A stretch of 64,000 nucleotides of DNA, from positions 2,832,501 to 2,896,500 of the forward strand of contig NZ_RBXL01000001.1 of NCBI RefSeq assembly GCF_003634315.1. The letters are read 5' to 3'. This document shows positions 8,145-59,548 of the stretch, piece after piece. How positions within the stretch are numbered: position 1 is the stretch's first letter; every line of letters starts with the position of its first letter. Position numbers and translations under genes: made by a program. Below the pieces are notes generated by a model, which ran no database searches, was not told where the DNA came from, and saw only the letters and a program-made list of their open reading frames with translations. This DNA is from Thiocapsa rosea. GTDB taxonomy: Bacteria; Pseudomonadota; Gammaproteobacteria; Chromatiales; Chromatiaceae.

Positions 8145-8975
8145 ATGACACGCGTCCGCCCGGAGAACCCTGGACGCCCGGAGCGCCCGGATGCTGCCCG
8201 ACGGCGGCGTCTTGTGCAGTTGACTCTGTGCCTGGTCGCGGCCGGTTTTTGCCGAGATGGCGTCGCACGCGAAGCGGCGACGACCGGGACACCCGATTGG
8301 TCCTACTCGGGGGTCGCGGGTCCGGACCAGTGGGGCGATCTCGGGGGTGAGTACGAGACCTGCGCGCGGGGCGAGCTGCAATCGCCGATCGATATCGTCG
8401 AAACCCAGCGCGTGAGCTACACGCCGTTGCTCTTCCGCTATCGATCGCAGCTCCTCGAGGCCGAGAATACCGGCCGCGGAGTCCGCCTGATCTCCCCGCC
8501 CGGCAGTGCGCTCGTGATCCGCGGACAGGCCTACGACCTCGCCGAGTTCAGCTTCCACGTCCCCGGTCTGCATGGTTTCCAGGGTGTTGCGGCGGAGGCC
8601 GAGATCCATATGCTGCATCGCGACGGGAAGGGCGGTTATGCCGTCGTCGCCGTGCCGCTGCGGGCCGGCGAGCGCGAGAATCGGATCCTCGATCGGATCC
8701 TGGAGTATCTGCCGACCCAGCCCGGAGAGCGGGTGCGGCAACGTCAGGTGGGGATCAACCCTCTCTTCCTGCTGCCGGTGGATCGCAGCTATTACAGATA
8801 TACGGGCTCGTTGGTTACGCCGCCCTGCACCGAGCCGGTGCTTTGGTTCGTCTTTCGCGAACCGCTCGAGGTGAGCGCCGATCAGATTCAGCGCATTGCG
8901 CGGGCCACGGGGATGAACGCGCGTCCCATCCAGCCCTTGAACGGCCGTCCGGTCTTCTCGCTTTTCCGCTATTAA
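8145..8975 (+). CDS. alpha-carbonic-anhydrase-like protein lacking one zinc ligand
   Basis: A 276-residue exported protein of the alpha-carbonic anhydrase fold. It has an N-terminal basic and hydrophobic stretch, then WSYSGVAGPDQWGDL and QSPIDI, typical of the family, and later GSLVTPPCTEPVLWFVF. Active alpha enzymes bind zinc with the two His of an HFH motif and a third His downstream. Here the first is Ser (EFSFHVPGLH: Ser136, His138), the following family Glu is Leu, and only His138 and His155 remain. CO2 hydration may therefore be lost or altered. ATG 8145 is supported by AAGGAG 8 nt upstream. The TAA stop lies within the adjoining palindromic element. Confidence 0.85.
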   Translation: MTRVRPENPGRPERPDAARRRRLVQLTLCLVAAGFCRDGVAREAATTGTPDWSYSGVAGPDQWGDLGGEYETCARGELQSPIDIVETQRVSYTPLLFRYRSQLLEAENTGRGVRLISPPGSALVIRGQAYDLAEFSFHVPGLHGFQGVAAEAEIHMLHRDGKGGYAVVAVPLRAGERENRILDRILEYLPTQPGERVRQRQVGINPLFLLPVDRSYYRYTGSLVTPPCTEPVLWFVFREPLEVSADQIQRIARATGMNARPIQPLNGRPVFSLFRY

Positions 8976-9057
8976 ACCGCGTCCAGAGCGACATGGGTTG
9001 TTTTCATGTTGCGTTTGGCTTCGGAGATCTTCTCGATCTCGGTGAGACGCGGTTTAA
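8972..9057. repeat. P3: palindromic TTAAACCGCG element, core B
   Basis: 86 bp with perfect 12-bp inverted ends (TTAAACCGCGTC and GACGCGGTTTAA). The core matches the copy at 10646-10730. Its first TAA is the stop codon of the carbonic-anhydrase-like gene. It forms a tandem pair with the element at 9079, separated by a 21-bp AT-rich spacer. Confidence 0.9.
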
Positions 9058-9078
9058 AATTTAAAATTTTTCAATTCT

Positions 9079-9165
9079 TTAAACCGCGCCAGCTCCGACA
9101 GTCGTCGGAGCTGGCGCGGCCACGCCATGCCAACACATGACGCATACCGCACCGGGCGCGGTTTA
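9079..9165. repeat. P4: palindromic TTAAACCGCG element, core A inverted
   Basis: 87 bp, TTAAACCGCGCC to GGGCGCGGTTTA. The core is the inverse of the A type. Its last three bases (TTA) are the TAA stop of the minus-strand pentaheme cytochrome gene. Confidence 0.88.
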
Positions 9166-10473
9166 GGGTGCGGAGATGTTCTGCTCCACGGCAGCCATCA
9201 GCACCGGATCGGTCAGCTCGCTCGGCAGCTGCGTGAACTTCTCCACCAGCGACGGCCACAAGAGGTTGTAGTACAGCTCGCCGCGCACCAAGACGACCCC
9301 TTCCGCAGGGATGTCGTAGAGGATTTCGCGGGTCTCATGGGGCTTGAGCCGGGTGTCATCGCCGAGCTGAGTTGCGGTGGGTGGCGGTGCGGGCATCCCC
9401 TGAGCGTCCGCAAGGCCGTAAAAGAAGTAGCCTTTGGGATCGTCCTTGGAGGGATGACTCTCCGAGTTTTGCCAGACCACTTCGCCTTGATCGTCATAGG
9501 CGGTGAGCTTCAGATACATGTTGCGGAAGGGCGCTCCGGTCGGTACCGAATGGGGTTGCGAGTTCTGCATGAGGACGGTCGTCTTCAGCACATCGCCGTC
9601 GATCTCGGTGCGCACGTCGAACACGACGGCCCGCTTGAGCATGCCGTGGTCGTGTCCGCCGCCCATGGAGTGATCCACCAGGCCGTTGGAGACCGGCATG
9701 TGACAGGATTGGCAGGCAACCTTGCTGCCGCTGGCGATGAACTCGTTGCCGGTCGCGCACAAGGGGACGTCCTGCGGATTGTTGCGCTGATCGTGGCAGC
9801 CCATGCAGGCATCCGAGGTCTTCATCAGGAAGGGGCTGGCCTCCATGGTCAGTGCGGGGATCTCGATCCCGTCCATCTCCACCGGCTCGCCCAAATGCGG
9901 GTTCGGCTTCTGCGAGCCCGCCGCGTCGTCGACCGCACCGCCGAACAGGTCGTCACCGGCCGCTGCCAGCTGCTGGACGCCGCGCGGGAAGGCAGCGGGA
10001 CCTTGAAGCTTGTCCGACAGCTCGTAGGCTTTCAGACCTAGGCGCATCTTGCCGTCCTCGCCCTGGATGCCCTTGTAGCTCTGAAGGGTATGACAGGCGA
10101 CGCAATTGACCCCTTCGCTGTAGGCGACATGGGCATCGAGCTTGGTGGTCTGGTCGCGGGCCGCGTTCGGTGCGTGACATTGCAGACAGATCGGGAAGGT
10201 GCCGGACTTCTTGTGCACCTGTCCTTCGGCCCTCGGATCTCCGACCTCCATCTCGTAGAAGGTGCCGTGGATCGGATCCTTCAACGCAGTGCTGTTGGCG
10301 TGCATGGAGCCTTTCCACTGCCGGTAGATCTCCTCGTGACAGGTCTGGCAAACCTCCGACGAGATCAGGTGGATCGGCTCGGAGGTGTCTTCGGCCGCCG
10401 CCGGAGCGGCGAGACCTCCGAGACCGAGTGCAAGGCCGAATGCGATCGAGAGTCCCGCGAGTATAGGTTGCAT
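9163..10473 (-). CDS. periplasmic pentaheme c-type cytochrome (cytochrome c554-like)
   Basis: A 436-residue exported multiheme cytochrome. A signal peptide (AFGLALGLGGLAAPAAAED) precedes five CXXCH haem-binding motifs: CQTCH (42-46), CLQCH (96-100), CVACH (124-128), CMGCH (223-227) and CQSCH (254-258). The C-terminal 170 residues contain no haem motif and look like a beta-rich domain. Spacing resembles the cytochrome c554/multihaem family, which transfers electrons or reduces small N, S or metal compounds. The substrate cannot be read from the sequence. It is divergent from the octaheme/tetraheme pair at 10977-13060, suggesting a shared respiratory function. The stop is formed by the end of a palindromic element. 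Confidence 0.85.
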   Translation of the reverse strand: MQPILAGLSIAFGLALGLGGLAAPAAAEDTSEPIHLISSEVCQTCHEEIYRQWKGSMHANSTALKDPIHGTFYEMEVGDPRAEGQVHKKSGTFPICLQCHAPNAARDQTTKLDAHVAYSEGVNCVACHTLQSYKGIQGEDGKMRLGLKAYELSDKLQGPAAFPRGVQQLAAAGDDLFGGAVDDAAGSQKPNPHLGEPVEMDGIEIPALTMEASPFLMKTSDACMGCHDQRNNPQDVPLCATGNEFIASGSKVACQSCHMPVSNGLVDHSMGGGHDHGMLKRAVVFDVRTEIDGDVLKTTVLMQNSQPHSVPTGAPFRNMYLKLTAYDDQGEVVWQNSESHPSKDDPKGYFFYGLADAQGMPAPPPTATQLGDDTRLKPHETREILYDIPAEGVVLVRGELYYNLLWPSLVEKFTQLPSELTDPVLMAAVEQNISAP

Positions 10474-10645
10474 GGGGTGTCGCTCCTTATCTTCTTGTGA
10501 TGTGGACGGTGTGACACGGACGCCTGTCCGACCGTCGTGAATTGTTCACTATTGATGCCGTCGGGAAAAGTGCCTGCAGTCAATGAAATTCGGTTCCTGT
10601 CTCGCTCCGGTCCAAACCCATAGCATTTAATTAAATTCTAATGCG

Positions 10646-10730
10646 TTAAACCGCGGCAGAGCGACATGCGTCATTTTCATGTTGCGTTTGGCTTCAGAGA
10701 TATATTCCATCTCGGTGAGGCGCGGTTTAA
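10646..10730. repeat. P5: palindromic TTAAACCGCG element, core B
   Basis: 85 bp, TTAAACCGCGGCA to GGCGCGGTTTAA, with the same core as 8972-9057 (GCGACATG...TTTTCATGTTGCGTTTGGCTTC). It stands alone in the divergent cytochrome intergenic region. Confidence 0.88.
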
Positions 10731-10928
10731 ATTGAATGGGTTCAGGCCGGGGCCTTCTGGATCTTTCGGTCGGGCCACACCCTGTCTATTCGAAATAGCC
10801 GCATAATGAAAAGAAAAAAAAGAGCCTTTTTGTTCGTTGCTTTAGCCCTTTTTTCTCCGTCGGTCATCCGATGGGTCAACAACAGAATATCGATAGGTTC
10901 TGAATTAGATTGCTCGGTCCGGCCGCCC

Positions 10929-59038: not shown

Positions 59039-59070
59039 GGGCGAATTGATTCGCCCACCCGGAGCCAAAT

Positions 59071-59175
59071 CGTCGTCGTAATCGACAACGACAACGACAA
59101 CGACAACGACAACGACAACGACAACGACAACGACAACGACAACGACAACGACAACGACAACGACAACGACAACGA
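59071..59175. repeat. H8: 15-unit perfect GACAAC hexamer array
   Basis: A short CGTCGTAATC lead, then fifteen uninterrupted GACAAC units (59084-59173) and GAGG. It is the longest pure run in the window and sits just after the diheme cytochrome gene. The purity suggests recent expansion. Confidence 0.9.
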
Positions 59176-59245
59176 GGCTTTGGTCATCCTCTCGTCCATG
59201 CCTCTTGGGTTCCCCGACCGGACGCAAGACTTCGGCCCCACACCC

Positions 59246-59335
59246 GGGTACGCCGACTTCAGTCGGCCCCCGGGGAGGCGGACTTCAGTCCGCCGTGCGG
59301 GCGTGCTCGGGGGGCCGACTAAAGTCGGCGTACCC
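59246..59335. repeat. inverted repeat GGGTACGCCGACTT
   Basis: GGGTACGCCGACTT (59246-59259) and AAGTCGGCGTACCC (59322-59335) enclose GGCGGACTTCAGTCCGCC, itself a hairpin. It lies between two hexamer arrays; this type of repeat is common in intergenic DNA of such genomes. Confidence 0.65.
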
Positions 59336-59385
59336 AAGCGGCGACCTGGACACTGCCGATGTGGCCGAAACGATGATCGAGGCTG

Positions 59386-59462
59386 ACAACGACAACGAGT
59401 AGAGCGTTCGACCACTTTTCCTGCTTGCGGCTCTGCCGGTAGATCCTTTTCCGGAAATCAAC
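59386..59462. repeat. H9: short hexamer remnant plus linker
   Basis: GACAACGACAACGAG (59386-59400) followed by a ~62-bp linker closely matching 13163-13225 (CTCTGCCGGTAGATCCTTTT, then CCGGAAATCA), leading directly into P14. The arrangement repeats that at 13098-13310. Confidence 0.75.
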
Positions 59463-59548
59463 TTAAACCGCGTCCCCGCAAAGGATTGTGGATGCGCCAA
59501 ATGTCGATCTCACTCGAAAACGAACATCTCACTCCGGACGCGGTTTAA
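59463..59548. repeat. P14: palindromic TTAAACCGCG element, core C
   Basis: 86 bp, TTAAACCGCGTCC to GGACGCGGTTTAA, close to 13226-13310. The minus-strand RND pump gene reads into it: the last codons (LKPRPE and TGA stop at 59529-59531) are element sequence. Confidence 0.9.

What the first reader, a model, noticed from the sequence alone, without database searches (positions are those of the whole stretch)
8972..59548. Family of ~86-bp palindromic elements with TTAAACCGCG ends and interchangeable cores
At least 14 copies (802, 7743 truncated, 8972, 9079, 10646, 13226, 20663, 41844, 41951, 43252, 43776, 46673, 49878, 59463) plus a decayed one at 31248. All share terminal inverted repeats TTAAACCGCG(T/C)CC but fall into at least four core types (A-D). 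Length is fixed at 85-87 bp while the core differs, which is not expected for a simple REP sequence and looks like a MITE-like or folding-constrained element. No transposase gene is in the window.
Basis: seen in the sequence. Interest (0 to 1): 0.75.

Follow-up and report, generated by a model that had tools for sequence, protein, structure and literature searches.

The report
Two-part mobile hairpin at stop codons
In purple sulfur bacteria, a tiny mobile DNA element made of two different 86-letter hairpins has spread to hundreds of places, often inside a gene's stop signal, where its own end letters rebuild the stop so that the protein is unchanged.

Summary
In detail: 283 strict copies in the genome (a Thiocapsa), 0 for the reversed-pattern control. 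The copies are not one repeat with freely swapped cores but modules of a dimer: one module of core class A/B and one of C/D, heads outward, flank a conserved 20-21 bp AT-rich spacer (132 of 136 typed adjacent pairs are A/B with C/D; shuffle mean 68). Nine of 347 clusters passed an empty-site filter. Four show an exact TA duplication at Y-TA-R, and at all four a dimer is present in at least one genome; five show no clean TA. Two loci show a dimer reduced to a single module. So it works like an IS630/Tc1-mariner MITE, with no parent transposase found. Its ends read TAAACC, so insertion into TAG or TAA re-forms TAA: 34 of 110 non-coding insertion clusters in 844 kb sit on a called stop codon, against 12% of available sites (p about 1e-7). 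One, in a Mur-ligase stop, is absent from five relatives that have TAG there. Elements occur in 20 of 210 genomes of the order and in 0 of 397 others from the phylum. REPIN/RAYT membership is not supported.

The parts
802..888 (+). solo module, type A, right end damaged
7762..7784 (-). right-end remnant of an A-type module; G001 has a C+A dimer at this site
8972..9057 (+). type D module, first half of a dimer; its bases 2-4 are the stop codon TAA of the gene called at 8145-8975 (carbonic anhydrase domain)
9058..9078 (.). 21 bp AT-rich spacer of the dimer
9079..9166 (-). type B module, second half of the dimer
10646..10730 (+). solo module, type D; no element at this place in G001, G002, G009, but the alignment has gaps there
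13226..13311 (-). solo module, type C
20663..20749 (+). diverged module ('other'), present at the same place in five relatives (G001, G002, G004, G005, G009)
31248..31334 (+). old diverged module; arm position 3 is G/G here and in G002 and G005 (also G004) but A/A in G009: compensated change at one site
41844..41929 (+). type C module, first half of a dimer; bases 2-4 are the stop codon of the gene called at 41461-41847 (L-PSP family)
41930..41950 (.). 21 bp AT-rich spacer
41951..42037 (-). type A module; dimer kept in G002, G005, G009, only this half in G001
43252..43337 (+). solo module, type C
43776..43861 (+). solo module, type A
46673..46757 (+). solo C-like module (typed by eye), right end damaged, so not in the counts; bases 2-4 form the stop of the ORF called at 46275-46676 (no Pfam match)
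49878..49964 (+). solo module, type A; bases 2-4 are the stop codon of the gene called at 48901-49881 (NAD-dependent epimerase family)
59463..59548 (-). solo module, type C

Best explanation
A non-autonomous, MITE-like transposon whose unit is a dimer of about 194 bp: a C/D module and an A/B module, each 85-88 bp with arms (TA)AACCGCG...CGCGGTT(TA), heads outward, around a 20-21 bp AT-rich spacer. Shown: it inserts at Y-TA-R with duplication of TA; at the four clean sites a dimer is what appears where relatives are empty; a single module can be what is left of a dimer; insertion into TAA or TAG re-forms TAA, so the protein is kept; stop-codon sites are over-represented about 2.5-fold. Inferred: the outer ends are joined by an unidentified DDE transposase acting in trans in the manner of IS630/Tc1-mariner, the two modules being left and right ends; singles arise by deletion between the repeated ends; copies at stop codons survive because they do no harm, and the hairpin just after the stop may then protect or end the mRNA.
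For: TA duplication with host bases split left and right at four sites: Mur-ligase stop (dimer in the own genome, CTAG in G001, G002, G004, G005, G008); G004 dimer (CTAA in G000, G001, G002, G005, CTAG in G009); G001 dimer (CTAA in T. roseopersicina DSM 217, locus L231; one comparison, direction not polarised); TTAG site (dimer in G002 and G003, single in the own genome, TTAG in G001, G005, G008). Outer ends of pairs vary like target sequence (C in 96 of 291 C+T) but inner ends are nearly fixed (C in 32 of 293), p=8e-11. Hetero rule 132 of 136 typed pairs, shuffle maximum 88 in 10,000; also in Thiobaca, Thiocystis and Lamprocystis loci, small numbers. Y-TA-R at 104 of 112 own clusters against 926 of 4,421 non-coding or stop TA sites. 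Dimer to single at 41844-42037 in G001 and at the TTAG site in the own genome. Stop codons: 34 of 110 against 12%, p=1.4e-7; of 43 gene 3' ends within the first 40 bases of an element edge, 40 lie exactly at bases 2-4; the excess recurs in other sets that share sites. TA targeting with TA duplication is how IS630-family ISY100 transposes (PMC2170065, passages read).
Against: Of the nine clusters that passed the empty-site filter, five show no clean TA: G000@163331, G001@155627 (TCAA), G001@205257, G004@50593 (CTGC or CAAT) and own_L085@3400, the last a single module; G002:35710, also single, is likewise unclear. At 20 of 25 own clusters with matched flanks G001 also holds an element, so most insertions are old. 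No transposase bounded by these ends was found: 60 of 110 DDE_3, 36 of 100 Y1_Tnp and 30 of 178 DDE_Tnp_1 places inspected, some cut by contig ends; the IS630 seen in the own genome has other ends. Single copies are not more diverged than paired ones, so some singles could move alone. Neighbour orientation is like that of all intergenic spaces (64 tandem, 26 convergent, 25 divergent against 284, 91, 99), no support for a terminator role.
Confidence: 0.7

Rival explanations
1. REPIN-like elements: inverted pairs of REPs copied as single strands by a RAYT (TnpA-REP).
For: Palindromic doublet of similar size, hundreds of extragenic copies; Y1_Tnp genes in 11 of 11 genus genomes. The REPIN paper also argues that doublets are the mobile unit and singlets remnants (PMC3116915, passages).
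Against: TA duplication with both host bases split; none of 36 inspected Y1 loci (of 100 matches) is flanked on both sides by these ends; three genus genomes have Y1_Tnp matches but no strict element; the two halves differ by rule; singles are not more diverged, unlike REP singlets.
Confidence: 0.08
2. The single 86 bp module is the transposon, and dimers arise when a second module lands about 21 bp from the first.
For: 217 of 514 non-redundant copies are single; their end bases are target-like (outer against single, p=0.51); they are not more diverged; two single copies face near-empty, though not TA-clean, sites (own_L085@3400; G002:35710).
Against: Fixed spacer length and sequence, strict A/B with C/D partnering, inner ends nearly fixed, and dimers at the four clean sites.
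Confidence: 0.13
3. Immobile RNA or DNA structural elements (terminators, mRNA-end stabilisers) kept in place by selection.
For: Arms of diverged copies stay complementary through double changes (orthologous sites 31248 and 802); folds as single-stranded DNA better than shuffles (z below -2.5) for seven of eight window copies tested; many copies lie directly after stop codons; site 20663 kept in five relatives.
Against: Exact empty sites with TA duplication show movement; neighbours not biased to convergent pairs; 23 of 110 own clusters lie between divergent genes; interior pairs show little covariation; in A-D copies most arm changes are one-sided; no Rfam match in the window.
Confidence: 0.15

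Closest known systems
RUP, ERIC and Correia/NEMIS elements (bacterial MITEs with TA ends; PMC2229807 and PMC3049150, passages read)
   Same: About 100-160 bp, palindromic, TA at termini, target duplication, mostly between genes; RUP is tied to IS630-Spn1 by its ends.
   Different: Here the unit is a dimer of two different modules with a fixed AT-rich spacer; single modules occur; strong stop-codon habit; no parent IS found. Sequence was not compared directly with these families.
REPINs (PMC3116915, passages read)
   Same: Inverted doublet as replicating unit, singlets as possible remnants, hundreds of extragenic copies.
   Different: TA target duplication, halves of two classes, halves of 86 bp that are themselves palindromic, no associated RAYT found.
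BIMEs and RIP/RIB elements of enterobacteria (recalled, not tested)
   Same: Composite mosaics of palindromic units with linkers.
   Different: Here the composition follows a two-class rule, and insertion as a whole with TA duplication is seen.
ISY100/IS630 transposons (PMC2170065, passages read)
   Same: Insertion at TA with TA duplication.
   Different: No gene; ends AACCGCG bound none of the 60 DDE_3 loci inspected.

Membership tests
MITE (non-autonomous DNA transposon) | terminal inverted repeats and target duplication shown by empty sites | tested here: met
   four sites; five further filtered sites without clean TA
MITE (non-autonomous DNA transposon) | no transposase gene inside; short | tested here: met
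   86 bp modules, ~194 bp dimer
IS630/Tc1-mariner-derived MITE | TA target duplicated | tested here: met
   four sites; 104 of 112 own clusters at Y-TA-R
IS630/Tc1-mariner-derived MITE | ends shared with an IS630-family element | tested here: not met
   60 of 110 DDE_3 places inspected, none bounded by these ends
REPIN/REP | GTAG or CGTC tag beside a short hairpin (PMC3733652, abstract and part 1 of Results read) | tested here: inconclusive
   not searched systematically; none stood out in the copies
REPIN/REP | RAYT gene flanked by the same repeats | tested here: not met
   36 of 100 Y1_Tnp places inspected, none flanked on both sides
REPIN/REP | no target duplication (recalled) | tested here: not met
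   TA duplicated

The most novel reading that the evidence does not exclude
A mobile element whose ends are built to be silent in stop codons: the terminal A after the duplicated TA re-forms TAA, so the family spreads through the 3' ends of genes, gives each host gene a strong stop and a hairpin 3' end, and moves as an obligate heterodimer of left-end and right-end hairpins whose DDE enzyme is of an unknown or host-domesticated kind.
Probability: 0.3. Interest if true: 0.78.

Novelty: new variant of a known kind. Interest (0 to 1): 0.6.

Why it matters
It shows a simple way for a transposon to live in a gene-dense genome: target the TA of stop codons and carry the one base that repairs the stop. 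It also gives a clear natural case in which the copy counted as a repeat (86 bp) is half of the moving unit, so repeat censuses of REP- or MITE-like families may count fragments. The missing transposase is a concrete, searchable question.

Tried and rejected
Autonomous parent: I looked in the loci held for distant outward-facing ends with something between; seven spans of 300-3000 bp in six loci came up. Five loci were read and held ordinary-looking host ORFs (judged by eye, no family search); the 491 bp span in L056 was not read. An A/B...C/D arrangement 100-4000 bp apart with heads outward was sought; one case of 282 bp turned up, longest open frame 150 codons, not recognised as a transposase by eye. 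Of the 30 DDE_Tnp_1 loci, L322 has a dimer beside the gene and L324 one end, neither bounding it. RAYT: rejected as above. Vectors: no strict match in viral contigs; no match of the window dimer in plasmid or phage records. Rfam: no match in the window at gathering score. Internal RNA structure: little covariation except an inner pair of type B. Same-site type swaps are mostly artefacts of flanks that contain the partner module; I use only sites matched on at least one side and checked. The first own-genome counts counted locus L088 twice, as it overlaps the block; one search gives the corrected numbers. In one search the 118 diverged copies include orthologues of one another. Genes were called by my own codon-usage script, not a standard program.
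Full report
What is there. The strict pattern occurs 283 times in the genome and its reversed control 0 times. In the 464 kb around the window there are 74 copies with up to two mismatches per end, 73 of them 85-89 bp.

Distribution. Same genus: 8 of 11 genomes including the own, with 58 to 283 strict copies; the three without (G006, G007, G010) are the more distant ones by one gene (82-84% identity). Order search: 20 of 210 genomes, in 8 of 61 genera, all rows being of one family. Phylum sample: of 398 genomes only the own; the other 397 are of other families.

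Two module classes and a dimer. Four cores, A-D, recur; diverged one-off cores make up the rest. Of 514 non-redundant copies in the sequence held, 297 lie in adjacent pairs. Of 136 pairs with both cores typed, 132 join one of A/B with one of C/D, and 131 of these point heads outward. A shuffle of partners gives 68 on average and never more than 88 in 10,000. The same rule is seen in the Thiobaca (10 pairs), Thiocystis (2) and Lamprocystis (2) loci. The spacer is 20-21 bp in 117 of 136, 87% AT while the window is 65% GC, consensus GATATTAAAAAATATAAAATT from A/B to C/D.

Movement. Nine of 347 clusters passed an empty-site filter. Four are clean. (1) A dimer in the own genome at the end of a Mur-ligase gene (Pfam); G001, G002, G004, G005 and G008 have CTAG there. 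(2) A dimer in G004 where G000, G001, G002 and G005 have CTAA and G009 CTAG. (3) A dimer in G001 where T. roseopersicina DSM 217 has CTAA (one comparison). (4) A dimer in G002 and G003, a single A module in the own genome, and TTAG in G001, G005 and G008. In each, the first base of the empty site stands left of the insert and the last base right of it, so TA is what is duplicated. The other five are not clean: no TA, or a near miss such as TCAA, in the place of the insert; one of these five is a single module. At 104 of 112 clusters of the own sample the outer bases fit Y-TA-R, against 926 of 4,421 non-coding or stop TA sites. The outermost base of a pair varies as expected of target sequence (C in 96 of 291 C+T), while the inner ends are nearly fixed (C in 32 of 293; p=8e-11), as expected if the dimer moves whole. 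Most own clusters with matched flanks are also filled in G001 (20 of 25), so most insertions are old.

Solo modules. At site 4 and at window 41844-42037 (dimer in the own genome, G002, G005, G009; single A in G001) the single is best read as a dimer that lost one half between the repeated ends, in the way of a solo LTR. Yet singles are not more diverged than paired copies, so I cannot exclude that some singles move.

Stop codons. Both ends of an insert read TAAACC from outside inward, so insertion into the TA of TAA or TAG leaves TAA. In 844 kb, 34 of 110 non-coding insertion clusters sit exactly on a called TAA/TAG stop codon, three of them on two convergent stops, against 12% of available Y-TA-R sites outside coding sequence (p=1.4e-7); two further clusters lie in called genes. 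Of 43 gene 3' ends that fall within the first 40 bases of an element edge, 40 are at bases 2-4 (37 flagged as TAA/TAG; the other three were not looked at); random insertion into gene ends would put about two thirds in the other frames. The excess is seen in other sets (G001 9 of 36; G002, G004, G005, G009 together 12 of 25; 106 other loci 77 of 166; 14 Thiobaca loci 11 of 22), which share sites and are not independent. At the Mur-ligase gene the protein end is kept while TAG becomes TAA. In the window the carbonic anhydrase, L-PSP and epimerase genes end this way. The excess may come from selection, from target choice, or both; I cannot separate these.

Arms. In the 118 diverged copies, some orthologous to each other, arm changes come mostly in matched pairs: position 3, 25 matched with 29 left and 28 right changes; position 6, 11 with 12 and 13; position 7, 8 with 9 and 9. 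In the 404 A-D copies most changes are one-sided (position 10: 27 one-sided, 0 matched). At orthologous sites 31248 (position 3) and 802 (position 5) both arms differ together between species. Either pairing is selected, or template switching repairs palindromes. Interior pairs covary little. Seven of the eight window copies that I folded as single-stranded DNA fold better than shuffles (z below -2.5); 31248 does not.

Mechanism and limits. TA targeting and duplication are how the IS630-family element ISY100 moves (PMC2170065, passages), so I take an unidentified DDE transposase acting on the outer arms as most likely. None was found with matching ends in the loci inspected, and no match turned up in viral contigs, plasmids or phages. 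Literature: the listings, and the passages I read, showed no description of this family, of a heterodimeric MITE, or of a MITE habit of regenerating stop codons; most papers listed were not opened, and subscription journals are mostly not held. The 2024 review of prokaryotic MITEs (PMC10969869) has no 'stop codon' or 'dimer' in its text; the T. bogorovii genome paper has no 'palindromic repeat' or 'transposase'. A Coxiella MITE inserted in frame near a gene's 3' end is described in PMC5896051 (passage), which is a different case.

Noticed in passing
window 31400-31423, 34368-34397, 34560-34583, 41290-41307, 46805-46834, 49998-50060, 59083-59172, 62714-62737, 62883-62936: Arrays of the hexamer CGACAA / TTGTCG, several facing each other around GGATTCCGG-like centres; looks like a second family of palindromic repeats.
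   Followed up: no
window 13148-13225 and 59385-59462: The 78 bases left of the two type C solo copies are also alike (69 of 78), so a larger stretch was duplicated or moved with them.
   Followed up: no
L011, L013, L016 (own genome): Y1_Tnp genes (RAYT-like) with perfect inverted repeats of at least 16 bp on both sides, unlike the arms of this family.
   Followed up: no
L141, L149, L156, L158, L164: IS630-type element of about 1.17 kb with ends like TATACCTCATATAGGC in the own genome and G001.
   Followed up: partly
window 8972-9166 and its orthologues: Dimer position kept in several species while the module types at it differ (D+B here, A+A in G004 and G005, A plus a fragment in G001): repeated replacement or conversion at one site.
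   Followed up: partly
own genome, e.g. L095 and the block around the window: Some diverged copies begin TGAACC or CTGAACC with a matched other end, so an insertion there could end a gene with TGA instead of TAA.
   Followed up: no
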